Below, in pieces: positions 42,928 through 56,484 of a DNA stretch of 64,000 nt. Within the stretch, counting starts at the first letter, position 1, and each line of letters begins with the position of its first letter. Where the stretch lies: contig JAJVIK010000016.1 of the NCBI GenBank assembly GCA_022072055.1, forward strand, positions 62,001-126,000. The letters run 5' to 3'. This stretch comes from a bacterium (GTDB taxonomy: Bacteria; Hinthialibacterota; Hinthialibacteria; OLB16). Position numbers and translations under genes: made by a program. A model generated the notes under the pieces. The model did not search any database, was not told the DNA's origin, and saw nothing but the letters and a program-made list of their open reading frames with translations.

Positions 42928-43263
42928 GGTTGAAGCTTAACGCCGGGGGGATGGGGGGGGAAGGCCACTAAAGGCAGGACCCACTCAATTATCGATATGC
43001 CTCCCGTCTTTGCGCGCGCAAGTCGCGGTCGAACGCCTTGGCAAACTGGAGCTCATAGGACCCCATCTTCGCCAAGACCTCAACAACCTACCTCCTCCTG
43101 GAATGGCGTCCACTGCCCATTTTCCTTCCCAACACCCTTCCCCCTCCACCCCGGCGAGCGGGTTCCGGGATCCCCTTCGCGGCGAGGATGCGTGGGTCTT
43201 GGCCCGCCGAAGATGAATAAAGATTCTTGTACTCACAGTTGGTTCCTTCTATCCTCATGTTCC
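42928..43263. other. Gap before the CARF activator
   Basis: No gene seen in either strand. It contains G-runs near 42940-42960 and a promoter candidate at its right end. It marks the left border of the defence-like island. Confidence 0.45.
43227..43255 (+). promoter_or_regulatory. Promoter candidate of the CARF activator, possibly leaderless
   Basis: TTGTAC, 17-base spacer, TATCCT. The expected start of transcription falls within a base or two of the ATG at 43264, and no ribosome binding site is visible before that ATG, so a leaderless mRNA is likely if this is the promoter. Confidence 0.4.
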
Positions 43264-44781
43264 ATGAATCGGCGCCTCCTGTTTGCCTGGATCGGCGCAA
43301 CCGACCTCAGGGCGGCTTCCGGGGTCAAGGAAGTGGGACTTGGGCCGATCGCCCAGGCGGTCACGGGCCGGGATTACGATCAGATTGTCCTTCTCTGCGA
43401 TTACCCCTTGAAGGAGGGAAAGTCGTACGTCGCCTGGCTCTCGGGCCAAACCAAGACCAAGATCACCCTGCAACGGGTGACCCTCTCCGGCCCGACTCAC
43501 TTCGGCGAGATCTATGAGAATGCCGTTGGGGTGCTCCAGGAATCTTTGCAGGGAATGGGGGCACAGTTCGAGCTCACCTTTCACTTAAGCCCCGGAACTC
43601 CGGCCATGGCTGCGGTCTGGATCATTCTTTCCAAAACTCGGTTCCCCGCTGAGCTGATCGAATCCTCGAGGGAGCATGGGGTCCGGACTGCCTCAGTCCC
43701 CTTCGACCTCTCCGCCGAATACCTTCCAGACCTCCTCCGAAAGCCGGATGAGCAACTCCGGAGCCTATCCGAGGGTCTCCCTCCGGAGGCGCCCGAATTC
43801 TCCGACATTGTCCATCGGTGTGAGAGCATGCGCCGTGTGATCGCTCGCGCCCGCAGAGTAGCACCTCGCAACGTGCCGGTTTTGATCCTCGGAGAGAGCG
43901 GGACGGGGAAGGAGCTTCTGGCGCGAGCCATCCATGACACCAGCCCACGCAGGGACCGCCCCTTCATCGCGGTCAATTGTGGCGCAATCCCTCCAAACCT
44001 TGTCGAGTCTCAGTTTTTCGGTCATGAAAAGGGGGCTTTCACGGGAGCGGACAGAGCCAAGCGAGGATTTGTCGAGGAAGCATCCGAGGGAACCCTTTTT
44101 CTGGATGAAGTGGGGGAGCTACCTCTCGATGCCCAAGTTCGATTCCTGCGCGTTCTTCAATCGGGGACCGTGACTCGTGTCGGGGCCTCACGCGAGACTC
44201 CCGTGGATGTCCGTGTGATTGCCGCCACAAACCGCGACCTGTTTGTCGAGGTCCCGGCGGGCCGTTTTCGGGAAGACCTGTTCCAACGCCTGGCAGTAGC
44301 TATTCTGCAGCTCCCACCTCTTCGGGAACGGCAGGGAGATATCGGTCTCTTAATCGACCGTCTCCTCAACCAGGTGAACAACGAGGGCATCGGGCAGCCG
44401 GGGTATCGGCACAAGACTCTTTCTGCTAGCGCAAGGTCTCTTCTACTCCGCCAGGAATGGCCGGGGAATGTGCGGGAGCTCTTGAACACCTTGCGACGGG
44501 CCTCAATCTGGTCCGGGGGCGCGGTGATCGAGGAGCCGGACATCCGGGACTCGATCCTGCCCATGGGCCGCCAGGAGCCGCGAGGTCTCCTCGACCGACC
44601 GCTTGGGGAGGGGCTGAATCTGCCCGAAATGATGGCGGAATTGGCCACTCACTATCTCAAGCGAGCCATGCAAGAATCGGGGGGGAACAAGACCAAGGCG
44701 GCCGAGCTGGTGGGGTTGCCGAGCTATCAGACACTGACCAATTGGCTGAGGCGGTATGGCCTGACCGAGATTCTGGCATGA
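43264..44781 (+). CDS. CARF domain-sigma-54 AAA+ activator-Fis HTH (RtcR-like regulator)
   Basis: A 505-residue transcription activator. Residues 1-165 look like a CARF Rossmann domain: strand LLFAWIGATDL, then the HLSPGTPAM loop (107-115), the ligand-binding position in CARF proteins. The AAA+ domain has Walker A GESGTGKE (from 210), the sigma-54 contact loop GAFTGA (257-262) and Walker B LFLDE (D281, E282), with a sensor region LPPLRERQGDI. A C-terminal Fis-type HTH ends GGNKTKAAELVGLPSYQTL. Known RtcR activators also couple CARF to sigma-54 and respond to RNA damage products; here no rtcA/rtcB is adjacent. It should switch on the operon downstream, which carries a sigma-54-like promoter. 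Ligand unknown. Confidence 0.85.
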   Translation: MNRRLLFAWIGATDLRAASGVKEVGLGPIAQAVTGRDYDQIVLLCDYPLKEGKSYVAWLSGQTKTKITLQRVTLSGPTHFGEIYENAVGVLQESLQGMGAQFELTFHLSPGTPAMAAVWIILSKTRFPAELIESSREHGVRTASVPFDLSAEYLPDLLRKPDEQLRSLSEGLPPEAPEFSDIVHRCESMRRVIARARRVAPRNVPVLILGESGTGKELLARAIHDTSPRRDRPFIAVNCGAIPPNLVESQFFGHEKGAFTGADRAKRGFVEEASEGTLFLDEVGELPLDAQVRFLRVLQSGTVTRVGASRETPVDVRVIAATNRDLFVEVPAGRFREDLFQRLAVAILQLPPLRERQGDIGLLIDRLLNQVNNEGIGQPGYRHKTLSASARSLLLRQEWPGNVRELLNTLRRASIWSGGAVIEEPDIRDSILPMGRQEPRGLLDRPLGEGLNLPEMMAELATHYLKRAMQESGGNKTKAAELVGLPSYQTLTNWLRRYGLTEILA

Positions 44782-44789
44782 CGGATGCT
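44774..44789 (+). promoter_or_regulatory. Sigma-54-like promoter upstream of the ATPase/PLD operon
   Basis: TGGCATGACGGATGCT matches TGGCACG-N4-TTGCW at 10 of 12 fixed positions, with GG and GC exactly 10 bases apart. It overlaps the stop codon of the CARF activator and points to the next operon; transcription would begin near 44800. Confidence 0.55.
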
Positions 44790-45074
44790 TCATATCGTAA
44801 ACCGTAATCAGAACGATGAAGATGGAATTGACTGTTTGATTGGAGGCCGCTAGGCAAGATGGGTGGAACAAGTCGAGCGGGGAAAATCCGAGCGGGGGCT
44901 CGTCCTAAGTCGCATGGAGAGCGAATCGCGGCGGCCCTCCGCAGGGCGCGCAAGCTGGCCCCCGAGAAAAGAGCAGGTCAACTCAGGGCCGCGAGGAGAG
45001 GAGGTGCGAATAGCGCTGCTGGCGACAGGCCCGAAAACCCAATGGAGACTCCTCCGAGGACCATCCCCAGTGGG

Positions 45075-46673
45075 ATGCTGCATTCCCTCGAACTCGAGAA
45101 TTTCAAGGCTTTCGGAACGCGCGTCAAGATCCCCTGTGCGCCGATCACCCTCATCTTCGGACCCAATAGCTCGGGCAAGAGCTCAATTCTCCAAGCACTT
45201 CACTTGATGAAGCAAACTTACGACCATTGCGAGAAGCCTGGAGGGCTTACTCTCCAAGGGGAGGGGTGCATTGTTGATTTGGGGAGCTTCCGCGAACTGG
45301 TCCACGATCATAAACCACAACGAGAGGTGAGGATAAAGCTCGCGACAACATATGAGAATGGCTCACCGTCCGCACTTGAATGGACCTACCGAGTACCTGT
45401 GGGTCGGTCACGTGAATCACTCTCATCCCTTACGGTCTTTGTTGATGGTGAAAGCCACCCATTTACCGTCATATATGACATTCGCCAAGGCACCTCCAAG
45501 CAACGGGACCGACGTAAGACACAACAACTCTCCCGCCCCCCAGGCTTAGTGGCCCACTGTAGGACACTCATAACCCCTCCGCAACAGTGGGAGGCTTATG
45601 CCCGCACCTTTTTCGAATCCAGAGGCCAATTCGAGAAATGCATCGACGACCACCTCGAGCGGACGAAATCCGATACAGGGGCTGAAATATTCTTCCCGAC
45701 ACTTCCCCGTATCAAGAGAAGGACGGCTCTGCGGCTGCTACGGAGGTTGAAGAGTGAGATCTCTTGTACTACATCTCCAGAAAACACCTTGCACTGGATA
45801 TCATCGCTGGCAAGGGGTTATAAGGTCCCTCTGTCAAGTTTCCTTTTGGATTCCAAGGTCCGGAAAGACACATCACAAGTATTCGATCTATTCTTGGCCT
45901 TACTCGCTGACGTGTCACTCGATAGCCGCCCACTCTATGCTGGTTGGTGGAGGCGGATAGACTCCCTTCAAGACGCCGTTGGGAAGCTCCTCGATCGGGT
46001 TTCCCCGATGGGGCCATTTAGAAGAACCCCCCAGCGGTGGTACCAAGTTCCTGACGTTATGCCAGTCCACGTTGGACTCCATGGCGAGAATTTCCCCTAT
46101 CTGCTCTTTCATAACCCAGCACTCTTAAGTGAGACCAACAAGTGGTTAGAGGTTCTTGACATGCGTTATTCTCTCGACATACAACAAATCGGCGATGGAG
46201 ATCTACACCTCGTGGAGGTGCGGTTATCAAGGCGGCGGCCGAGACAGAATGATGCATTGGCGGACGTTGGGTTTGGGGTAACTCAGATCCTTCCAATTCT
46301 TGTCGAAAGCCTGAACGCCACGGGAAGGATCATCACCATCGAACAGCCCGAGGTTCACATTCATCCGAAGCTTCAGGCCGACCTTGGTGACCTGCTCATC
46401 CACTCGATCAAGAAGGAAGACGCCAACCAGTTCATCATTGAAACCCACAGCGAACACTTGATCCTCAGACTCCTGCGACGGATTCGGGAAACTACGGAGG
46501 GGACCCTTCCGAAGGGCGCGGAGCCTTTGAAACCGGAGGACCTTTCTGTTCTCTATGTAAAACGTGGGAAGGAGGGTTCGGAGGTGGTTCAACTGCCGGT
46601 CACGCCGGATGGGGATTTCGCCCAGCCGTGGCCAGACGGCTTCTTTGCTGAAAGAGCAAAGGAGCTATTCTGA
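45075..46673 (+). CDS. OLD-like AAA/ABC-type ATPase, copy 1
   Basis: A 532-residue ATPase of the AAA_15/AAA_21 (OLD-like) group used in many defence systems. Walker A GPNSSGKSS (K35), an ABC-like signature DVGFGVTQILP, Walker B TIEQPEVHIHP (E423) and a switch His in IETHSEHLI are visible. The tail VQLPVTPDGDF...FAERAKELF resembles DUF3696. No TOPRIM or nuclease domain is attached, so the effector is probably the next gene, 3 bases downstream. Start chosen at MLHSLELENFK by match to copy 2; the frame is open to ATG 44859, which has a GGAGG 12 bases upstream and would add 72 Arg/Ala-rich residues. Confidence 0.85.
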   Translation: MLHSLELENFKAFGTRVKIPCAPITLIFGPNSSGKSSILQALHLMKQTYDHCEKPGGLTLQGEGCIVDLGSFRELVHDHKPQREVRIKLATTYENGSPSALEWTYRVPVGRSRESLSSLTVFVDGESHPFTVIYDIRQGTSKQRDRRKTQQLSRPPGLVAHCRTLITPPQQWEAYARTFFESRGQFEKCIDDHLERTKSDTGAEIFFPTLPRIKRRTALRLLRRLKSEISCTTSPENTLHWISSLARGYKVPLSSFLLDSKVRKDTSQVFDLFLALLADVSLDSRPLYAGWWRRIDSLQDAVGKLLDRVSPMGPFRRTPQRWYQVPDVMPVHVGLHGENFPYLLFHNPALLSETNKWLEVLDMRYSLDIQQIGDGDLHLVEVRLSRRRPRQNDALADVGFGVTQILPILVESLNATGRIITIEQPEVHIHPKLQADLGDLLIHSIKKEDANQFIIETHSEHLILRLLRRIRETTEGTLPKGAEPLKPEDLSVLYVKRGKEGSEVVQLPVTPDGDFAQPWPDGFFAERAKELF

Positions 46674-46676
46674 ACA

Positions 46677-47612
46677 ATGCTCTACGAATTCGCCATCGAT
46701 CCGGAAGCGATTCTCGAATGGGCTAAGGACCGGAACCTGGCTGCCTTCTTCCTTGATGGAAAGTTCGGCCTTGGGACAGCGCGTATCATGGCCCAGTTCC
46801 CGAAAGGATGGAGGAAGAGAGTTCATTCTTTTTTTGGACAAGGTAGCGGGACCTTAGCCGATTCCCGGCTTGGCGAGATTCTAAAGGAGCTTGGTTCACA
46901 TGTTACAGCCCGTCCGGCATCGGAATGGTGTGATGATTTGCCTTGGTTAGAGAACACCGAGCGGGAGGACTTACAGTCCCCTTTTCACGCGATTCTTGGA
47001 GTGCGGAACCCTCGGTTAAGCAGCCGTGTGCTGAATGCCTTGAGTCCCGGAGAAGTTGTAGATTCCCCACTCTGGAAAACTCAGCATGGAGTTACAGTTA
47101 AGCGCACAGCAGATGAAATAGCTGAAGCTATCTCGCCGATGCTTCGAATCGCCGACGAGATCTATTTTATCGACCCTTACTTTGACCCTGGAACTAAAAA
47201 GAAACGTGATCCCATCCTCAAATCGTTAAGGAGGGCTGAGGGCTCCAGGGGGGGCTCCGCGCCACGAATTATCCAGGTTCGGTGTGATTACGACAAGAGT
47301 GGTACCGATGAGTATTTCCAATGCAAGTGTAAGGAGGACCTCCCGAAAAAAATTCCAAAGGGGTGGGAGGTGGTATTCCTCCGCTTGAATAATAATGACT
47401 CCGGTCAGCGCTTGCACAACCGTTACATCCTCACCAATCTGGGCGGCGTGATTTTTGGCCATGGAATCGATGAAGGAAAGCGTGATGAGACGGACGAGAT
47501 AACCTTGCTCAGCAAGGATCAGTATTGGAAACAAAGGGCGGCCTATATTGACCAACCTGTCTTTATGGAATCAGGGCAACGAATTGTAGTTCGCGGCACG
47601 AGATGTGAATGA
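46677..47612 (+). CDS. PLD-fold-like putative effector, copy 1
   Basis: A 311-residue soluble protein, the partner of ATPase copy 1. It shares a set of blocks with copy 2 at 51323: an N-terminal IDPEAILEW, a middle WLENTEREDLQSPF, then VKRTADEIAEAI, IYFIDPYFDP and near the end LHNRYILTNLGG followed by an acidic GIDEG. The DPYFDP plus HxRY arrangement recalls phospholipase D-fold proteins, including MIT_C-type domains, but the canonical HxK motif is absent. It could be a nuclease, a lipid- or nucleotide-acting enzyme, or a binding domain. Three bases separate it from the ATPase. Confidence 0.6.
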   Translation: MLYEFAIDPEAILEWAKDRNLAAFFLDGKFGLGTARIMAQFPKGWRKRVHSFFGQGSGTLADSRLGEILKELGSHVTARPASEWCDDLPWLENTEREDLQSPFHAILGVRNPRLSSRVLNALSPGEVVDSPLWKTQHGVTVKRTADEIAEAISPMLRIADEIYFIDPYFDPGTKKKRDPILKSLRRAEGSRGGSAPRIIQVRCDYDKSGTDEYFQCKCKEDLPKKIPKGWEVVFLRLNNNDSGQRLHNRYILTNLGGVIFGHGIDEGKRDETDEITLLSKDQYWKQRAAYIDQPVFMESGQRIVVRGTRCE

Positions 47613-47634
47613 AGCGATTACGGGAGAGGGAACG

Positions 47635-48528
47635 ATGAAGGAAAGACACTTCCTCTACTGCTGGAGTCTTGACACCGCCGATTGGGAGCAGGACCTCGGA
47701 ACGGTCCTGAATCACATCGCGGGGCAGCAACTCAAACGAGTCGCCGCTGGGGACACGGTTTGGATCGTGACACATCGCGATGGTGCGGTTTCCTTGCGCG
47801 GAAGAATCGTGGTGGATGCGGTCACTGATTTCGATGGGGCCTGCGAGCGGTTGGGAACAACCGACCTGTGGGAATCCGATTATCACCTGATCGCCGAGCC
47901 GGGAACCGAGGAGCCTCTGGATGACATCCCCCTCGAAGAGAACGTGGCCCTGCTCCGATTCAACAGCAAGAAGGATCGCTTCACGGTCGAAAAGGACGGT
48001 CGAGTGGATTACCACCAAATGCAGACCATGCGGGAGCTCACCCCGGAATCCGCCGAGCTCCTGCAGAAAATCTGGGATGAAGCGGCGATGCCGAGCGGCT
48101 CCGAGATTCCACTTGATCAAGCCGAGGAGTGGTCCCGTGGGGCCGGATTTGGGGAACCGGAGAAAAACAGGCGTGTCGAGGAGGCTGCGGTCAAATTCGT
48201 CACCGAGTGGTACACACGCGAGGGATGGGCGGTAGTTTCCGTGGAATCGGAAAAACTCGGATACGACCTCGTCTGCAAGAAAGAAGGCATGGAGGAATCC
48301 GTGGAAGTGAAGGGCGTGTCCGGCGAGGATCCCCGATTCATTATCACCGAGCGAGAGGTGAATGCCGCTGAAACGCTCCCAGACTTTTTCCTCTGTGTGG
48401 TGACAGCGGCCCTTACCTCCAGGCCACAGCTCCATCGTTTTTCTGGCGAGGAGTTCCTCGATAAATACAACCTGTTCCCTATTCAGCATCTCGCCGTACC
48501 CCGAAAGGCGGAGGGGGCTCAGAGTTAG
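47635..48528 (+). CDS. EVE/PUA-like domain fused to DUF3883 nuclease-like domain
   Basis: A 297-residue protein. The N-terminal 75 residues (FLYCWSLDTADWEQDL, GDTVWIVTHRDG) look like an EVE/PUA-type fold that reads modified bases. The C-terminal part matches DUF3883: GYDLVCKKEG and ESVEVKGVSG supply D211, E224 and K226 in the D-ExK spacing of PD-(D/E)XK nucleases. Such fusions suit modification-dependent restriction. ATG 47635 follows GGAGAGGG; a GTG at 47605 would add ten residues and overlap the PLD-like gene. It is the third gene of the putative sigma-54 operon, 22 bases after the second. Confidence 0.72.
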   Translation: MKERHFLYCWSLDTADWEQDLGTVLNHIAGQQLKRVAAGDTVWIVTHRDGAVSLRGRIVVDAVTDFDGACERLGTTDLWESDYHLIAEPGTEEPLDDIPLEENVALLRFNSKKDRFTVEKDGRVDYHQMQTMRELTPESAELLQKIWDEAAMPSGSEIPLDQAEEWSRGAGFGEPEKNRRVEEAAVKFVTEWYTREGWAVVSVESEKLGYDLVCKKEGMEESVEVKGVSGEDPRFIITEREVNAAETLPDFFLCVVTAALTSRPQLHRFSGEEFLDKYNLFPIQHLAVPRKAEGAQS

Positions 48529-49151: not shown

Positions 49152-49182
49152 GGGGGCGGTTCCACGTGGCGGCCTGGGTTAA

Positions 49183-49492
49183 GCCCCCCCTCACCACTCC
49201 TCCTTCAACCACTCCTCCGGCAGTTCCGCCACGCACACATCCGGGTTGCCGCGACGGGTTGAGGTGAAGACCACCTTGCTTCCCTCATTGTTCCAGCCCA
49301 CGTGCGGATGGGCGCCGTGGCCGTAGGTGCGGTGGTTCTGGGTCAGGATCCGCGCGCGCGCGGTCTTGCCGCTGAAGATGCCGATATCCCCATGCCAGTT
49401 GTCAGCCGCCGCGAAGCGTCCGCAGGGAGAACCCGCGCAATGCCACCAGTTGTACTTGGAGACCTCCGCCGGGGTCCCGGTGGGCCACCAAC
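49183..49492. repeat. 310-bp direct repeat, left copy
   Basis: Matches 55250-55559 without gaps at an offset of 6067 bases. Bases 49225-49492 differ at only 3 of 268 positions; the first 40 or so bases differ more. The copies bracket the second ATPase/PLD pair, the helicase and the CARF gene. The match ends sharply at 49492. Confidence 0.92.
49191..49492 (-). pseudogene. 3' fragment of an oligogalacturonate-lyase-like gene
   Basis: About 100 C-terminal codons of the protein encoded intact at 55258-56484, in frame to a TGA at 49191. The part upstream (toward 49597) is absent and replaced by the promoter region of ATPase copy 2. The last residues read PEEWLKEEW, against PESWLREGW in the intact gene, so the fragment once belonged to a working but slightly different allele or paralogue. 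Confidence 0.88.
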
Positions 49493-49544: not shown

Positions 49545-49572
49545 TTGCCTATTCTATAAACTCTTGTATCAT
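49545..49572 (+). promoter_or_regulatory. Sigma-70-like promoter of ATPase copy 2
   Basis: TTGCCT, 16-base spacer, TATCAT, located between the repeat end (49492) and the ATG at 49597. GGGAGGA follows as ribosome site. Confidence 0.45.
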
Positions 49573-49596
49573 CGGCGTTCCACGGGAGGACTGCAA

Positions 49597-51321
49597 ATGC
49601 TCCACTCAATGGAACTGGAAAACTTCAAGGCCTTTGGTCGACGGGTGAAGATCCCCTGTGCTCCAATCACGCTCATCTTCGGTCAGAACAACGCGGGGAA
49701 GAGTTCGATCCTTCACGCGCTTTACTTGATGAGGGCATCGGCCCAGCATACATCCGACGATGATCGATGGCTCGTTCTAGCAGATAAACAAGGTTCCTTT
49801 GACCTTGGCGCCTTCCCGAATGTCATTTTCGGTCACCACACAAGGCGCAAGGTGAAGATCAGAGTCGTGTGGACAAGTTCGAAACCACGTAAATCCGTTG
49901 GAGACAAGGGAATAACCGATCCCTTCCAGAGATTCTTCGGAAAACTCGATGATCGCCTGTTAGGAGTTGAGTACTCATTCATTCTACCACCCGAGAGCGC
50001 CTTCCCATTTGCTGACAGGATTGATCTGTTCGTCTCTTCCTTTCTTCGGCCATTCGCCACCTTCACTCTTATTAAGACTGAAATGTGTCGCGTTTCAGGG
50101 AAAGGGCATGGAGTTCCACGCTCGGCGCTGGACCATTTACGGGAGATTGTCCGAGGCAAGCAAGAGTTCGCATGGTCCTATCTATCAAGCCATCCGGACC
50201 TCTGGAAGAATCAAGTTGATAGCCTCACTGCCCGCCGGGCGGAAATTATTGGTCTGCTCAAGACACTAGACAAACGAACGCAACAGATTGTCCCTGACAA
50301 CACTAATCGCAACCTCCTTCAGTTTCAAACGCGGATACCTGACGGGAATCTCGCTGACCACACCGGTGTGGTGGACGCCTTACGTTTCTATACTGGTGAG
50401 ATTTCTGCGGAGCGGCTCGCAAAGCGCGTTTTCGGTGAACTCAAGTCCTGGATAGCCAGTGTGTCGCTCTTTGAATGCGAACTAGAATGGCCGATTCAGC
50501 TGTCATTGTTTGAGTGGGAAAACGCTCCCCCAGAAGACCCAGATTATCATTATGTGTCCGAGTTGTTTGGCGACTTGCTCGCCATTGAAACGGTCCCAGG
50601 AGCAATCCTTAGTAACCTCAAGCGCCAACTCAAGAGCATCGAGCCGCTTGGTCCAACTCGTGCAATCCCGAAGCGGATTTATACCTTTGAAGGTGTTAAG
50701 CGTGAGGCTGTCGGCTTTCTAGGAGAGGAATGTCCAGCTCTTCTCTATCATCAGCCGGATCTCCTTTCCGAAGTCAATACGTGGCTTGCTGGAAAGGACA
50801 AGCTCGACTCAGGCTACCGTCTTTCCGCTGACGAAGTGCAATTTCGAACCATGGAGCTCTTCCAGATTAATGTTCTTGAGACTTTTAGCCGTGGGAAGGC
50901 TCCCATCCCTTGGTCTGATGTCGGATATGGATTGAGCCAGATTGTTCCTATCGTAATTCAATGTCTTCTACGGAATTGTTCGATTCTTACCTTTGAACAG
51001 CCTGAACTCCACATTCACCCACGCCTTCAAGCTGCCCTCGGCGACCTCTTTATCCATTCCGCTCAAAGGGGCAATCAACTGATCATCGAAACCCATAGTG
51101 AGCATCTGATATTGAGGCTCCTGCGACGGATTCGTGAGACAACAAATGGAACACTTCCGGAAGGAGTTGATCCTCTCCGACCGGAAGACCTCTCTGTTCT
51201 CTATGTCAAACGTGGAAAGGGGGGTTCGGAAGTCGTCCAACTTCCCGTGACGCCGGATGGGGATTTTGAGTCCGATTGGCCGGAAGGGTTCTTTACAGAG
51301 CGCGAAAGGGAACTCTTTTGA
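49597..51321 (+). CDS. OLD-like AAA/ABC-type ATPase, copy 2
   Basis: A 574-residue paralogue of the ATPase at 45075. Walker A is GQNNAGKSS (K35), signature DVGYGLSQIVP, Walker B TFEQPELHIHP (E467), switch IETHSEHLI. The first 40 and last 110 residues are closely conserved between the copies, including the VQLPVTPDGDF tail, while the middle (about 50-400) is strongly diverged, as expected for a region that senses a trigger or binds a partner. GGGAGGA lies 6 bases before the ATG. The partner gene starts one base after the stop (TGA-C-ATG). Base composition is visibly more AT-rich than in the flanking chromosome. Confidence 0.87.
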   Translation: MLHSMELENFKAFGRRVKIPCAPITLIFGQNNAGKSSILHALYLMRASAQHTSDDDRWLVLADKQGSFDLGAFPNVIFGHHTRRKVKIRVVWTSSKPRKSVGDKGITDPFQRFFGKLDDRLLGVEYSFILPPESAFPFADRIDLFVSSFLRPFATFTLIKTEMCRVSGKGHGVPRSALDHLREIVRGKQEFAWSYLSSHPDLWKNQVDSLTARRAEIIGLLKTLDKRTQQIVPDNTNRNLLQFQTRIPDGNLADHTGVVDALRFYTGEISAERLAKRVFGELKSWIASVSLFECELEWPIQLSLFEWENAPPEDPDYHYVSELFGDLLAIETVPGAILSNLKRQLKSIEPLGPTRAIPKRIYTFEGVKREAVGFLGEECPALLYHQPDLLSEVNTWLAGKDKLDSGYRLSADEVQFRTMELFQINVLETFSRGKAPIPWSDVGYGLSQIVPIVIQCLLRNCSILTFEQPELHIHPRLQAALGDLFIHSAQRGNQLIIETHSEHLILRLLRRIRETTNGTLPEGVDPLRPEDLSVLYVKRGKGGSEVVQLPVTPDGDFESDWPEGFFTERERELF

Positions 51322-51322
51322 C

Positions 51323-52276
51323 ATGATCAAAGAGATTGCGGTCGATCCAGAGGTCCTCGCCGACTGGAATGGATATCGGATTGTCTTTCAAGGGTGTGGT
51401 GTGGAGAAAGGCAGGCTCATCTGGCGATTCCCTGAGGATTGGCCATCCAAGGTCGTGGAACGAATTGATCAGGCTCGCAAGACAAGTCAGCTTCAACCTG
51501 TAAAAGCCAAGACCATAATCGAAGATGTGAGGAAATCCTATCGCCGAAAAACTGTCCCAAGCCGGAGAAGGTATGCCTCAGAGAAATCATGGTTGGAGAA
51601 CGCAGAGAATGAACACCAAAGAGAGCCATTCAGTTTGATCGTTTGTTGCGGCAATCCGCAGTCCTTGAGTGGAGTCCTCGCGGCGGATGACATCACTGAA
51701 GAAACGGATGGATGGTACGTCAATACAGGAAAGAAGGTCGAACGAACGGCTTCTAATCTTGCTGATTGTGCACGTGTCCTTCTCAGCCACTCGACAAGGA
51801 TTATCTTCGTAGATCCTTACTTTGATCCCCAAGAAGAGAAGTTTCTTTCTTCATTGCGCGCCTTCCTGAGCGCCTGTCCCGAGGCACATGGTCCAAAACG
51901 GAAGTTCGAGCTCCACTCAAAGGTGCAAGCAAAAAGAAATAGAGACGGTCAATTCAACGAAGAGTCCGGCCTAGAGTGGGAGAAGCGATGCTTGAGCTTG
52001 CGGCGGATCCTACTACCCAACATAAGCCTTAGCATCTTTCGGTGGCGAGACTATGCACAGGGAGAAATTCTCGAGGGATTCCATGCTCGATATATTCTAA
52101 CTGAACTTGGTGGGATCCGTTTTGACTGGGGACTCGATGAAGATCCAAAGAGGAAGAAGACCGATGTTCAAATCCTCAATCACGATCTTTACACGGAACG
52201 ATGGAGGGATTTCCAGGAAGGAAGTTCTCCTTTCGATTTAGACTGGAAGATGAAAATCGACTACAGTGCAGACTGA
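51323..52276 (+). CDS. PLD-fold-like putative effector, copy 2
   Basis: A 317-residue paralogue of the protein at 46677. Shared blocks: VDPEVLADW at the N-terminus, WLENAENEHQREPF, VERTASNLADCARVL, IIFVDPYFDP and FHARYILTELGG followed by an acidic GLDED. Between the DPYFDP and HxRY blocks the sequence is charged and variable. It has no signal peptide or membrane helix. It ends with a 16-base overlap with the convergent helicase gene. The same role as copy 1 is expected, coupled to its own ATPase. Confidence 0.62.
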   Translation: MIKEIAVDPEVLADWNGYRIVFQGCGVEKGRLIWRFPEDWPSKVVERIDQARKTSQLQPVKAKTIIEDVRKSYRRKTVPSRRRYASEKSWLENAENEHQREPFSLIVCCGNPQSLSGVLAADDITEETDGWYVNTGKKVERTASNLADCARVLLSHSTRIIFVDPYFDPQEEKFLSSLRAFLSACPEAHGPKRKFELHSKVQAKRNRDGQFNEESGLEWEKRCLSLRRILLPNISLSIFRWRDYAQGEILEGFHARYILTELGGIRFDWGLDEDPKRKKTDVQILNHDLYTERWRDFQEGSSPFDLDWKMKIDYSAD

Positions 52277-54174
52277 CCTCTTTCGAGCAACCCTTCCACT
52301 CCGATTCCATCCCACTCCGGCACCCATTCATCCGCGCCGATCGCAAATCTCCTGATATGATGGTTTGACTGTATCGCCGACGGACGGTCCACGATGAACA
52401 CTTGCGCCTTGGCGCGGCTGATGGCAACATTCCAAATTCGGGAGGCATCCCTGCTTCCCGTCAGGAAACCTTCCATCGAATCAACTGGATCCAGGACAAC
52501 CACAAGGGCTTCGCTGCCCTGGCAACGATGAACTGTGCTGACCTCCACACTGGGTGTCCCGCTTAGGAAATGGCGAAGGTAGTAGGACTGCATTCGGAAG
52601 GGCGAGATGACCAGGATGCGCTCGTCGTGGCCTAACAGGGGACGGATCCCATGCACAATTCCCGCTGTGATCCGCGCGGCCCTCAAATCTCCCTTTGAAC
52701 CTTGGATGGTGAACGGACGGCTTGGGGGGGTGATCCACGCTGGGGGTTGGGCGCTGGACTTATTTACAACAACCCGCGGTTTTACCGGCCAGGGCGGAGG
52801 CCAACAGGGCAGTGGAGGATTGCCGACCACATTGAGGTCACCATCGTAGAAGGACTGTGCGATGAAGTCGCACAGGCTTTCATTCATACGGCTCTGCTCG
52901 TTTAGACGCACCATGATCCCCATATCGAAGAGCCGATGTACTCGATTATTCGCGGATTCGTTTTCAATCCCCACTAGATCAAACACAGTCCTCTCGAACA
53001 AGAGACGGATATCAGCCTTCACTTGATGGGGGGCAAATTTGGGGACCGAGCAGAAGGGACGCAGCTGCATGGGGTCCCCCACGAACAGCCACTGTTTGGA
53101 TTGGAGCCCCAGGAGGAATGCAATCATGGGAAGCGCAACGAGGGAGGCTTCATCTAGAATGACCAGGTCCCACTCTTCATCCCAAAGCGTGTTCCGAGCT
53201 AGAAGACTGGCAAGAGTAGTGGCGGCAAGTCTCGCCTCTGGCAAGAGATGCTCGAGGAGGGAGTTACGCTCAATTCCCAACTGGTGGAACTGCACCTTCG
53301 TGGCGGCGGCATCGGACTCGAACGGTAAGTCCTGATCAGCAGCCCCTGGAAAGTCAGCCCGTTCCGCCTTCTTCTGGTCGATCTTACAGGCGATCTCATC
53401 CAAGCACATTTGGAAACGAAGAAGATGCCTGCGTCCAGGAAAGTCAAACTCGGGATGCTGCGGGTACCCCAGACGAAGGATGGTTCCCTCGGGAAGAGTA
53501 TGGCCGCTGCTTCGCGCGGCATTGTCGGTTTCGAGAACTAGGAGGTCGACTGAACGGTTAGTGGGCCCCACCGCCAGTACCTTGCGTCCATCCAGAATAT
53601 GGGCGAGAGCAATGGCGCCAACTGTGAAAGTCTTGCCGGTTCCCGGTGGTCCCCAGATCAGGCCGATCTGCTTTCGGGCCACTGAAGATGCCTGTCGCTG
53701 GCGTTCCCTTAAAGTCCCAACATGGTCGGTCAGGGCCGGGATCACAACGTGTCCTGCCGAAGAATCCGGCCATGTGCTCCTTCCGACTGACTCGTAGAGT
53801 ACAGGCAGTCCGCGCAGCCCCTTCGACCATTCCAGCAGACCTTTCAGGTAATCTGGCGGGAAGACAAGCAGCTCATCGCCAACGACCAAGTCTCTGCCGC
53901 TGGCCTTCTTGATGACAAGGCACTGGTCGGTTTCGTTGACCCGGAGAAGTTGGCCGCTGAAGAGGATCTTTTTGTTGGCGGTATCCTTGATGACACAGTC
54001 GCCCTCGAGATAACGAGGATCAGGAAGGTTGTCCTCGCTGCCCTTTCGTTTCGGGAAAGCACGGATGATCCGTGCGGATGTCTCGGTTTCGACTCCGGCT
54101 ACCACCATCTTGAAAGGCTTGAGGGAGGCGCGCTGAACCGCTCGGATGGCCTCACGGAATCGATCAATGTTCAT
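52261..54174 (-). CDS. Superfamily 1 helicase (UPF1/DNA2-like)
   Basis: A 637-residue helicase. About 160 N-terminal residues form a beta-rich domain, then the core: GPPGTGKT (175-182) as motif I, LVILDEAS as motif II, FVGDPMQLRPF as motif III, STVHRCQGSEA as motif V-like and WNVAISRAKAQ as motif VI. The layout is of the UPF1/DNA2-like group used in RNA or DNA unwinding and found in several defence systems. The ATG at 54174 lies inside the end of the CARF gene (11-base overlap), so the two are translationally coupled; a TTG at 54183 is less likely. Confidence 0.88.
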   Translation of the reverse strand: MNIDRFREAIRAVQRASLKPFKMVVAGVETETSARIIRAFPKRKGSEDNLPDPRYLEGDCVIKDTANKKILFSGQLLRVNETDQCLVIKKASGRDLVVGDELLVFPPDYLKGLLEWSKGLRGLPVLYESVGRSTWPDSSAGHVVIPALTDHVGTLRERQRQASSVARKQIGLIWGPPGTGKTFTVGAIALAHILDGRKVLAVGPTNRSVDLLVLETDNAARSSGHTLPEGTILRLGYPQHPEFDFPGRRHLLRFQMCLDEIACKIDQKKAERADFPGAADQDLPFESDAAATKVQFHQLGIERNSLLEHLLPEARLAATTLASLLARNTLWDEEWDLVILDEASLVALPMIAFLLGLQSKQWLFVGDPMQLRPFCSVPKFAPHQVKADIRLLFERTVFDLVGIENESANNRVHRLFDMGIMVRLNEQSRMNESLCDFIAQSFYDGDLNVVGNPPLPCWPPPWPVKPRVVVNKSSAQPPAWITPPSRPFTIQGSKGDLRAARITAGIVHGIRPLLGHDERILVISPFRMQSYYLRHFLSGTPSVEVSTVHRCQGSEALVVVLDPVDSMEGFLTGSRDASRIWNVAISRAKAQVFIVDRPSAIQSNHHIRRFAIGADEWVPEWDGIGVEGLLERGQSAL

Positions 54175-55249
54175 AGGAGTCAAGAATATGTAATAGGGCG
54201 TGGACGAAGCATACTGCCTCTTTAGTCAAATCATCAGGAAGGTTGGACAGGAAAATCCTGAACAACCTCGGGCTCGCAGGTCTCCGCTGCCCCACGGCCA
54301 TTGTTATCGCGCAGAGAGCAGCTAGCTCGCGTTGTCCGCTCCTTCGAGCGGTCTCCCCGAGGGTGGCCAAGACAGCCATCCGTCCTTTGGGAGAGCTCAA
54401 AAGAGTTTTTCCGTGAGCCAAGTTCTTATGGGGGTCAGCCCCCCCCTCGGTTCGGAGCAGCTTGCGAAGCTGGGATAAAGCCACCCCATAGCCGGCGGTG
54501 GCCAATGCATCAACGACTTTGAGGGACAAGAAACACTGAAGATCCTTGGGACCGGCGAATCCCTTATCGAGGATGCTCTTGAGAGTCCGCGCCGCGCTAT
54601 TCCAGGCGCCAGCGGCAATAAGTGCCACCGCCTGATTTCGCAGGTCCTGGCCGCAGAGCAGGAGCGCGCTGGGGAGTTGAACATATCGAGTGGTGAAGAT
54701 CAGATGTTTGTGGACCGGGTGCGCCTGCCCTTCAAGATACACTTGCCGGAAGTCCCGCGCCGCAGCAATGGCCCCTAAGGCCGCAGCCGTGGCTTTGCGT
54801 CCGCTGGTGACATCCACCACCACCGAATGCGGCGGCGGTTCGCCAGCCACAATGTAATACGAGTGAATGACATCCATGACCTTCACTGATTCGGTTCCAT
54901 CCCCGATGAAGGCCTTCTCTGTGTTACCGATGGACTCGCCATGCAGAACCAAAACTTTCGGGACAAGGAACTCTGTTTCAGAAGAGTAGAGGAGGATGGC
55001 TCTCTCGTGAGGAGTCGCGGTGAGTGCCAGCGCTGGTGAATACGGCTGTGTGCCAATCGTAACAAAGAGGATCTTGGCAGTTGGACGATTCTTGGCCTCT
55101 TGTTGGTGAATATTGCGGAGTAGGGGAAAGACCTCGTGCTCATAGAACCGTTCGGGAGTCCCGGCCCGTTTCCGGATCGCGGAAAGCTCATCCCATTTTC
55201 TTTGGAGAAGCCCAGCGCCCGACTCTAATGGATACTCGGATTGTGCCAT
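54164..55249 (-). CDS. CARF domain protein (Csx/TIGR02710-like) coupled to helicase
   Basis: A 361-residue protein. Residues 58-185 have a CARF Rossmann layout: strand KILFVTIGTQPYSPALAL, a middle strand, and VVVDVTSGRKATAAALGA (DVTSG at 146-150), the loop that in CRISPR-associated CARF proteins contacts cyclic oligoadenylate. The C-terminal 160 residues are helical, without a HEPN RxxxxH or a PD-ExK motif, so it looks like a sensor rather than a ring nuclease or RNase. The start lies 8 bases after the stop of the PL22-like gene and overlaps helicase start at its own end. No type III CRISPR locus is in the window. Confidence 0.72.
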   Translation of the reverse strand: MAQSEYPLESGAGLLQRKWDELSAIRKRAGTPERFYEHEVFPLLRNIHQQEAKNRPTAKILFVTIGTQPYSPALALTATPHERAILLYSSETEFLVPKVLVLHGESIGNTEKAFIGDGTESVKVMDVIHSYYIVAGEPPPHSVVVDVTSGRKATAAALGAIAAARDFRQVYLEGQAHPVHKHLIFTTRYVQLPSALLLCGQDLRNQAVALIAAGAWNSAARTLKSILDKGFAGPKDLQCFLSLKVVDALATAGYGVALSQLRKLLRTEGGADPHKNLAHGKTLLSSPKGRMAVLATLGETARRSGQRELAALCAITMAVGQRRPASPRLFRIFLSNLPDDLTKEAVCFVHALLHILDSYEH

Positions 55250-55559
55250 GCCCCCCCTCACCACCCCTCCCTCAACCAGCTCTCGGGCAACTCCGCCACG
55301 CACACATCCGGGTTGCCGCGACGGGTTGAGGTGAAGACCACCTTGCTTCCCTCTTTGTTCCAGCCCACGTGCGGATGGGCGCCGTGGCCGTAGGTGCGGT
55401 GGTTCTGGGTCAGGATCCGCGCGCGCGCGGTCTTGCCACTGAAAATGCCGATATCCCCATGCCAGTTGTCAGCCGCCGCGAAGCGTCCGCAGGGAGAACC
55501 CGCGCAATGCCACCAGTTGTACTTGGAGACCTCCGCCGGGGTCCCGGTGGGCCACCAAC
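55250..55559. repeat. 310-bp direct repeat, right copy
   Basis: Second copy of the repeat at 49183-49492. Here it forms the 3' end of the intact lyase-like gene. Homologous recombination between the copies would remove 6067 bases and leave one intact lyase-like gene. Confidence 0.92.
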
Positions 55560-56484
55560 AACCCGCCCCGATGATCCGCGCGATCCCGGTGTCGAGGTCG
55601 ATCTCCTTGACATGCGCCTCTTCCTCGTGCCCATCCCGGTTGATCCCGCTGCAGAAGAGCACCCGGTTCTCCGTCCACCAGCACTCATGCGTGACCAGCT
55701 CGCCATCGAGTTGGGGATAGATCGGCCACGGCGCTTTCCCGGAGGAATCGACCAGATACATCCGCGCGGCGACCTCGCCCGCTTGGACATCCTTGGCGCG
55801 GTCGCTCACCCGTCCCCCATGCGCGAACAGAACCAGGTCGGGATCCTCCCAGCTGGCCTGGAGGTGGGTCACAACAACCTCGAAGGCGGCGAGTGTTTTC
55901 ACCGCGCCGTCTGCCTTGTTCATGAGAACAATTTCGGAACCGTTCGAGCCGCGCAGGGTGAACCCGCTGACCAGGGCCGTGCCATCGCTGTTGTCGTTGA
56001 GGCCGAGGGAGCTCGCCGCGCGCTCCGGGAGCTTCCCGATCAGGGTCTCCTCGATCCGGACCGTGGAGGGTTTGTCCCCGGAGCCGATCTTGATTTCCGG
56101 TTTCCAGGAATAGGCCGCCTGGTCATGGATCACATAGATGCGACTGTCGCGTCGTCCCGCGCAAGGGTCCCCCGCGATGGCCTGCCCTGGGCGCTGGAGG
56201 CGAACCAGTTCGCCGGTGGCCTCCAGGTATCCGAAGATCTCGCTCGCGCCGCCGCGCTGGGTCCTGAAGATCAGGAGCGAGCCATCCGCGAGCCACGAGC
56301 GTTGATGGAAATAGAGGTTGAGGTCCTCGGCGGAGTTTCCGGTGATGAGGGTGAGCTTCGCGCCGGAGGTCGGGTCGGTGACCACCTCGCGCTCGCTGGG
56401 GAAGACCTCGCAATCCCAGCTTTCGGCGTGGGAGATGCGGGGGATGAGGAGAAGAATTAGCGTGGGAAGCAGGAGTGTTTTCAT
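55258..56484 (-). CDS. Oligogalacturonate lyase-like (PL22-type) secreted beta-propeller protein
   Basis: A 408-residue exported protein with signal peptide (LLLIPRISHAE). Repeating beta-blade pieces, THECWWTENRVLF, YNWWHCAGSPCGRF and GAHPHVGWNKEGSKVVF, with their His residues fit the seven-bladed PL22 oligogalacturonate lyase fold, which cleaves unsaturated pectin fragments using a metal held by His. Its last 100 codons are duplicated at 49191-49492. The CARF gene starts 8 bases beyond its stop, so CARF and helicase may be read through from here. Confidence 0.8.
   Translation of the reverse strand: MKTLLLPTLILLLIPRISHAESWDCEVFPSEREVVTDPTSGAKLTLITGNSAEDLNLYFHQRSWLADGSLLIFRTQRGGASEIFGYLEATGELVRLQRPGQAIAGDPCAGRRDSRIYVIHDQAAYSWKPEIKIGSGDKPSTVRIEETLIGKLPERAASSLGLNDNSDGTALVSGFTLRGSNGSEIVLMNKADGAVKTLAAFEVVVTHLQASWEDPDLVLFAHGGRVSDRAKDVQAGEVAARMYLVDSSGKAPWPIYPQLDGELVTHECWWTENRVLFCSGINRDGHEEEAHVKEIDLDTGIARIIGAGCWWPTGTPAEVSKYNWWHCAGSPCGRFAAADNWHGDIGIFSGKTARARILTQNHRTYGHGAHPHVGWNKEGSKVVFTSTRRGNPDVCVAELPESWLREGW

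What the first reader, a model, noticed from the sequence alone, without database searches (positions are those of the whole stretch)
43264..48528. CARF-sigma-54 activator facing its own sigma-54-like promoter and an ATPase/PLD/EVE-DUF3883 operon
The sequence shows a CARF-AAA+-Fis activator with an intact GAFTGA loop, then a 10-of-12 match to the sigma-54 consensus with correct GG-N10-GC spacing over its stop codon, then three tightly spaced genes with defence-type domains. Known CARF proteins sense cyclic oligonucleotides or RNA ends, and RtcR activators respond to RNA damage. I infer a signal-gated defence operon: a nucleotide or RNA ligand triggers sigma-54 transcription of an OLD-like ATPase with a PLD-fold partner and a modification-dependent nuclease-like protein. 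I know of no described system with this combination.
Basis: partly seen in the sequence, partly recalled or inferred. Interest (0 to 1): 0.92.

Follow-up and report, generated by a model that had tools for sequence, protein, structure and literature searches.

The report
Signal-switched sigma-54 phage-defence operon
A bacterial sensor-activator with a nucleotide/RNA-sensing (CARF) domain sits directly in front of a sigma-54 promoter that drives an ATPase and a PLD-fold partner, and the same sensor-promoter arrangement recurs in about 70 related loci from many phyla, mostly in front of restriction operons, which makes a 2014 prediction of infection-induced restriction directly testable.

Summary
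Gene 43264-44781 encodes a CARF-AAA+-Fis sigma-54 activator (PADLOC class RtcR_PspF2, not RtcR itself). The site TGGCATGACGGATGCT (44774-44789) overlaps its stop codon. An ABC-type ATPase (DUF3696, no TOPRIM), a PLD-fold protein and a NOV_C protein follow.

(1) Among 80 homologous activators, 35 loci carry the ATPase and 28 the PLD-fold partner. In reverse, 30 loci found through the partner alone gave 19 with the activator, 2 without, and 9 too short to tell. (2) A near-consensus -24/-12 element lies at the activator stop in 51/63 and 17/18 loci (shuffles: 0.4 and 0.1). Where the cargo is divergent or displaced, the element moves with it. rpoN is present in 39/42 genomes.

In most loci type I restriction genes lie between activator and ATPase; the window lacks them and has a second, diverged ATPase-partner pair. 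The kind was predicted (Makarova 2014) and noted for CoCoNuTs (2024). The conserved promoter and the ATPase-PLD module as its client appear new. Ligand and effector chemistry are unknown: Cas10 is in 12/39 and RtcA in 9/39 activator genomes.

The parts
43217..43230 (+). operator-like sequence ATAAAGATTCTTGT, 8/10 match to ACAAG-N4-CTTGT, a palindrome recurring 25-60 bp before activator start codons; candidate binding site of the activator
   Evidence: >=9/10 in 20/75 activators vs 20/662 other genes; this copy is a weaker 8/10 match (8/10 or better: 48/75 vs 137/662)
43264..44781 (+). CARF-AAA+-Fis sigma-54 activator (505 aa), class RtcR_PspF2
   Evidence: (PDLC01995 E 8.8e-197)
44774..44789 (+). 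sigma-54 -24/-12 promoter element TGGCATGACGGATGCT overlapping the activator stop codon
   Evidence: conserved in homologous loci
45075..46673 (+). ATPase A, ABC/AAA_15-AAA_21 type with C-terminal DUF3696 (frame open from 44859; start codon uncertain)
   Evidence: best PADLOC match NsnB of Menshen E 4.6e-55
46677..47612 (+). B, PLD-fold partner (311 aa), motif H247-N-R249-x4-N
   Evidence: pLDDT 88; Foldseek: SauUSI, PLD3, FAM83B
47635..48528 (+). NOV_C (DUF3883) protein; passenger, not conserved in related loci
   Evidence: PF13020 E 3.3e-12; absent from related loci
49597..51321 (+). ATPase A2, paralog of A: ends alike, middle diverged
   Evidence: (36.5% overall)
51323..52276 (+). B2, PLD-fold paralog of B (28% identity)

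Best explanation
This is an inducible anti-phage operon switched by a CARF-sigma-54 activator. Proposed sequence: (1) The activator is made at a basal level and kept inactive by its CARF domain [inferred from RtcR]. (2) Infection or nucleic-acid damage produces a ligand, most likely RNA ends such as tRNA halves with 2',3'-cyclic phosphate, or an oligonucleotide; the CARF dimer binds it and the AAA+ ring assembles [inferred by homology]. (3) The ring opens RNA polymerase-sigma-54 at the -24/-12 element located at the activator's stop codon [element and its conservation shown; its use inferred]. (4) This expresses an ABC-type ATPase and its PLD-fold partner, which act together on invading nucleic acid; in most relatives they are made together with a type I restriction-modification enzyme from the same promoter [gene linkage shown; joint action and target inferred]. 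The NOV_C gene is a passenger.
For: CARF fold and full sigma-54 activator machinery. -24/-12 element at the activator stop in 51/63 homologous loci and 17/18 loci found independently through B (shuffle means 0.36 and 0.1); GG and the G of GC invariant in 71 sites. The element moves with the cargo: it faces divergent ATPase operons in L088 and L089 (12/12 matches) and the divergent restriction operon in L095, and lies about 70 bp before the displaced ATPase in L040 and L083. rpoN present in 39/42 activator genomes including the window's. ATPase downstream or adjacent in 35/80 activator loci, B in 28/80. Reverse test: activator in 19 of 21 informative B loci. First downstream gene of 50 activators: HsdR 26, ATPase 9, N6 methylase 4, VWA 3. 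Cargo changes at least 16 times on the activator tree.
Against: No expression, ligand or phage data were found for any member in the held literature. The PLD-type motif has R for K in all 16 sequences, and N or E for D in the window's two copies, so nuclease activity is doubtful. The window lacks the restriction genes that accompany the pair in most loci, so the pair may act differently here. Two B loci with upstream sequence have no activator (L096, L099), the Methylocella plasmid has a WYL regulator instead, and the Deinococcus plasmid has no such regulator annotated. The activator-binding site for the promoter is not identified with certainty.
Confidence: 0.7

Rival explanations
1. The ATPase-PLD pair is an accessory of type I restriction-modification (for example, regulating or repairing after HsdR action), and the window holds an orphaned remnant of such an operon rather than a self-sufficient defence.
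For: In most loci found through B alone, HsdR-HsdM-HsdS lie between activator and ATPase. Named plasmids show the same order.
Against: The pair follows the activator directly, without restriction genes, in the window and in L023, L037, L039, L041, L046, L048, L071, L076, L079, L112. On the activator tree this needs 7 changes of the label, at least 4 of them forced by well-supported branches. Tandem copies exist in L039, L071 and the window.
Confidence: 0.3
2. The CARF domain reads cyclic oligoadenylate from the cell's own type III CRISPR system, so the operon is a transcriptional arm of CRISPR immunity.
For: The window's genome has a Csm1 (Cas10) gene. The CARF model matches cA4/cA6-binding CARF proteins best.
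Against: Cas10 (Csm1 or Cmr2) is over the cut-off in only 12 of 39 activator genomes. The strand-4 motif is SPGTPAM, without the K/R typical of other CARF families (PMC4012209).
Confidence: 0.15
3. The operon is an RNA-damage or stress-repair regulon like rtcBA, not antiviral.
For: The nearest characterised activator, RtcR, responds to tRNA fragments (PMC7790460) and controls RNA repair.
Against: Not RtcR by its equivalog cut-off (325 vs 650 bits). Downstream genes are restriction enzymes and defence-type ATPases. RtcA is absent from the window's genome and present in only 9/39.
Confidence: 0.1
4. The -24/-12 element is a chance match or drives something other than the ATPase operon.
For: No transcript map is available; the activator's own coding end contributes part of the window's site.
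Against: Rates about 100-fold or more above shuffled sequence, position fixed within 5 bases of the stop in most loci, and relocation with divergent or displaced cargo.
Confidence: 0.04

Closest known systems
RtcR / rtcBA RNA-repair regulon
   Same: CARF-AAA+-Fis architecture; sigma-54 dependent activation of adjacent genes; CARF strand-4 motif lacking the basic residue
   Different: Below the RtcR equivalog and Pfam RtcR cut-offs; not next to rtcBA; RtcA absent from this genome; activator and operon are in tandem with the promoter at the activator's stop; cargo is defence-type
CARF-NtrC activators linked to restriction-modification (Makarova 2014, PMC4012209); PADLOC RtcR_PspF2--CARF_AAA_HTH
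   Same: The same protein class (PDLC01995, E 8.8e-197) and the same predicted logic
   Different: The published work gives the prediction. The conserved -24/-12 element, its relocation with the cargo and the ATPase-PLD client are added here
RtcR-homolog-headed CoCoNuT superoperons (PMC11090510)
   Same: RtcR-like CARF gene at the 5' end, type I restriction genes often next; three loci here (L090, L091, L093) start with a VWA gene and carry a helicase gene
   Different: No McrBC/CoCoNuT genes were found in the window; its cargo is two ATPase-PLD pairs
Menshen (NsnABC)
   Same: ATPase A matches NsnB (E 4.6e-55)
   Different: No DUF262 NsnA and no OLD/TOPRIM NsnC; partner B matches no PADLOC, Pfam, NCBIfam or PHROG family
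SauUSI and other PLD-family restriction nucleases
   Same: B folds like the PLD nuclease domain of SauUSI (Foldseek probability 1.00)
   Different: One motif, HxRx4[DNE] instead of HxKx4D; separate protein partnered with an ABC-type ATPase instead of a helicase fusion

Membership tests
sigma-54 enhancer-binding proteins | Sigma54_activat domain with GAFTGA loop, Walker motifs and HTH | tested here: met
   (PF00158 E 2e-67; HTH_8 over cut-off); GAFTGA in the translation
sigma-54 enhancer-binding proteins | rpoN in the same genome | tested here: met
   G000 TIGR02395 E 3.7e-129; 39/42 activator genomes
sigma-54 enhancer-binding proteins | rpoN-dependent transcription of the target | not testable with these tools
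   needs transcript mapping
CARF superfamily | CARF Rossmann-like fold | tested here: met
CARF superfamily | binds cyclic oligonucleotide or RNA-end ligand | not testable with these tools
   no ligand data
RtcR (RNA repair) | NCBIfam equivalog NF038308 cut-off 650 bits | tested here: not met
   324.9 bits
RtcR (RNA repair) | genomic link to rtcA/rtcB | tested here: not met
   downstream genes are ATPase/PLD; no RtcA in G000; RtcB lies on another contig
RtcR_PspF2--CARF_AAA_HTH (PADLOC) | full-length profile match | tested here: met
   E 8.8e-197 over residues 4-500
Menshen (NsnABC) | NsnB-like ATPase | tested here: met
   E 4.6e-55
Menshen (NsnABC) | DUF262 NsnA and OLD/TOPRIM NsnC | tested here: not met
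   no such match in the operon's genes; components described in PMC10952713
OLD/Gabija/PARIS nucleases | TOPRIM nuclease domain or TOPRIM partner | tested here: not met
   no TOPRIM in A, A2, B, B2
PLD superfamily | PLD fold | tested here: met
   AF2 pLDDT 88; Foldseek SauUSI 7clg, PLD3 8v07 and FAM83B at probability 0.98-1.00, over roughly half the chain, TM about 0.3
PLD superfamily | catalytic HxKx4D motif | tested here: not met
   invariant HxR in 16 sequences; D, N or E at the third position
Type I restriction-modification | HsdR, HsdM, HsdS in the operon | tested here: not met
   absent between 43264 and 55303; present in most related loci
CoCoNuT | McrB-like GTPase and McrC/coiled-coil partners | tested here: not met
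   no such match among the window genes tested

The most novel reading that the evidence does not exclude
CARF-sigma-54 activators form a general plug-in switch in many phyla: a fixed sensor plus a -24/-12 element behind which defence cargo is repeatedly exchanged. The ATPase-PLD pairs are its dedicated client, and their tandem copies with conserved ends and diverged middles are a locally diversified set of recognition devices switched on by an RNA-damage signal.
Probability: 0.25. Interest if true: 0.85.

Novelty: new variant of a known kind. Interest (0 to 1): 0.62.

Why it matters
Restriction systems are usually thought of as always on. A conserved sigma-54 promoter tied to a CARF sensor and carried in front of interchangeable defence cargo says that many may be held off and induced by a signal. 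That turns the 2014 prediction into one with a mapped candidate promoter, a defined sensor domain, cultured hosts and a clear genetic test (rpoN, activator without CARF). It also gives a defined two-gene effector whose partner has no family in the libraries searched.

Tried and rejected
(a) RtcR itself: below cut-offs. (b) Menshen, PARIS, Gabija, CoCoNuT as names for the operon: defining parts missing. (c) The NOV_C gene as a core part: no homolog in related loci. (d) CRISPR-derived ligand as a general explanation: Cas10 in only 12/39 genomes. (e) Activator-binding site near the stop codon in the main class: no recurrent inverted repeat found; the best candidate lies upstream of the activator gene, and in one diverged subclass a TTTCAACC/GGTTGAAA-like repeat lies between stop and promoter. 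(g) B profile against PDB sequences: nothing meaningful. (h) The general promoter scan found no sigma-70-type site before the activator or ATPase A.
Full report
WHAT IS THERE. The finding's coordinates are right. Gene 43264-44781 encodes a 505-residue protein with sigma-54 AAA+, lid and Fis domains, and it matches PADLOC's RtcR_PspF2--CARF_AAA_HTH from end to end (E 8.8e-197). Its first 170 residues were modelled from 31 homologs (pLDDT 91); every PDB match at E<=1e-3 is a CARF protein. It is not RtcR by the equivalog cut-off (325 against 650 bits). The element TGGCATGACGGATGCT lies at 44774-44789, across the stop codon, and is the only TGGCAYGNNNNWTGCW in 64 kb (0.06 expected). Then come an ATPase (AAA_15/AAA_21, DUF3696, no TOPRIM), a 311-residue protein without any family match, and a NOV_C protein.

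ASSOCIATION, FORWARD. A scan of one genome per species with an alignment of the CARF domain gave 80 loci from delta-, gamma- and betaproteobacteria, Planctomycetota, Latescibacterota, Acidobacteriota, Gemmatimonadota, Spirochaetota and others. The ATPase has a homolog in 35 and the partner B in 28. The first downstream gene in 50 loci is HsdR in 26, the ATPase in 9, an N6 methylase in 4 and a VWA protein in 3. The commonest full arrangement is activator, HsdR, HsdM, HsdS, ATPase, B; a second is activator, ATPase, B, as in the window.

ASSOCIATION, REVERSE. That sample was chosen by the activator, so I searched with B alone in 1,372 genomes of four phyla and read the neighbourhoods of 30 hits not chosen by the activator. 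The activator is present in 19 (one divergent; two seen only in their C-terminal half at the edge of the fetched stretch), absent in 2 (L096, L099), and 9 are too short to tell. So the ATPase-B pair is largely a client of this activator class in these phyla. Exceptions are informative: a Methylocella plasmid has the same restriction-ATPase-B operon behind a WYL regulator, and a Deinococcus plasmid has ATPase-B without an annotated activator.

PROMOTER. I scored TGGCACG-N4-TTGCW, a consensus fixed beforehand from general knowledge. Within 150 bases of the activator stop, 47/68 loci reach 13 of 14.8 against 4/728 other gene ends. In a narrower stretch, 51/63 and, in the independent reverse sample, 17/18 reach 12.7, with shuffle means of 0.36 and 0.1. 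In the 71 sites with score 12 or more, GG and the G of GC are invariant; most sites start 1-5 bases after the stop. Seven other sigma-54 activators of the window's genome score 9.1-12.1 at their stops. The strongest point is that the element follows the cargo. In L088 and L089, where the ATPase is divergent, a 12/12 element faces it, as does one in L095 before its divergent restriction operon. In L040 and L083, where the ATPase is more than 1 kb away, the element lies about 70 bases before it. rpoN is over its cut-off in 39/42 activator genomes. Use of the element is inferred; no transcript data were available.

HOW THE ACTIVATOR MAY BE TETHERED. A palindrome ACAAG-N4-CTTGT recurs 25-60 bases before activator start codons (>=9/10 letters in 20/75 against 20/662 controls); the window has ATAAAGATTCTTGT at 43217-43230, a weaker 8/10 match. 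In a diverged subclass (L112, L117, L118, L120, L121) repeats such as TTTCAACCTGGATTGAAA lie between stop and promoter. These are candidate activator sites, not more.

LIGAND. RtcR's CARF binds tRNA 5' halves ending in 2',3'-cyclic phosphate (PMC7790460), and RtcR without CARF is constitutively active in vitro (PMC9650030). The present family shares the strand-4 motif without a basic residue (SPGTPAM; PMC4012209). RtcA is in 9/39 genomes and absent from this one; RtcB is in 26/39 including this one; Cas10 is in 12/39 including this one. None of these three is therefore required across the family. RNA ends remain the best guess, by homology only.

EFFECTORS. B models well (pLDDT 88), and about half of it superposes on the PLD domains of SauUSI, PLD3 and FAM83B (probabilities near 1, TM about 0.3). 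The motif is HNRYILTD: the K of HKD is R in all 16 sequences, and D varies to N or E, including both window copies. I call it a PLD-fold partner, not a nuclease. The window has a second pair: A and A2 agree at 76% and 71% in their ends but 25% in the middle, above the 95th percentile at the C-terminal end for other pairs with similar middles, and DNA identity at those ends is 76-78%. This suggests exchange or conversion of the ends with a diverging middle, perhaps a recognition part. Tandem pairs also occur in L039 and L071.

EVOLUTION. On a tree of 65 activators the cargo label (HsdR, ATPase-B, other) changes at least 16 times (23.7 if shuffled), and the ATPase-first state changes 7 times, at least 4 of them forced by well-supported branches. 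The activator and promoter behave as a fixed switch with exchangeable cargo.

WHAT IS KNOWN. Makarova et al. 2014 noted CARF-NtrC proteins not linked to Rtc, often with restriction systems, and predicted sigma-54 activation of the downstream genes. The CoCoNuT paper described RtcR homologs heading defence superoperons. Makarova 2020 is not held, and most subscription papers and bioRxiv are not searched, so priority claims are limited to the held library. Searches found no description of the conserved promoter or of the ATPase-PLD client.

LIMITS. The 80 loci are the best by similarity, many from metagenome assemblies. My gene caller is mechanical. Promoter scoring used hand-set weights, though the contrast is large. 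Three activator-bearing assemblies without rpoN are metagenome bins. Phage defence itself is inferred from the kinds of genes, not shown.

Noticed in passing
window 49170-49469 and 55237-55536: A 300-bp direct repeat (94%) flanks the block with A2-B2 and the helicase/CARF pair. The second copy is the 3' end of the gene at 55258-56484 (-), so the block looks like an insertion at that gene's end with part of the gene duplicated. Elsewhere in the genome only a weak 93-base match.
   Followed up: partly
window 52261-55303 (-): An SF1 helicase gene overlaps a second CARF-like protein gene (weak CARF-HEPN/Csx1 matches): a possible separate CARF-helicase defence pair.
   Followed up: no
window 49550-49597: Before A2 there is no sigma-54 element, but a sigma-70-like match and TATAAACTCTTGTATCAT, which resembles the operator found before the activators.
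   Followed up: no
L061 and L069, downstream of the activator: The activator is followed by a gene of unknown family and then one whose start reads like a reverse transcriptase: a possible reverse-transcriptase defence under the same switch.
   Followed up: no
L011 and L013, upstream of the activator: A 490-residue CARF-like protein is encoded directly before a diverged CARF-AAA activator in both loci.
   Followed up: no
L099, about 2390: A B locus without a local activator still has an 11/12 sigma-54 element about 115 bp before HsdR, suggesting control by an activator elsewhere.
   Followed up: partly
L126 (Methylocella tundrae plasmid p2): The restriction-ATPase-B operon is headed by a WYL regulator instead of the CARF activator and followed by a SIR2 gene: a regulator swap.
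   Followed up: partly
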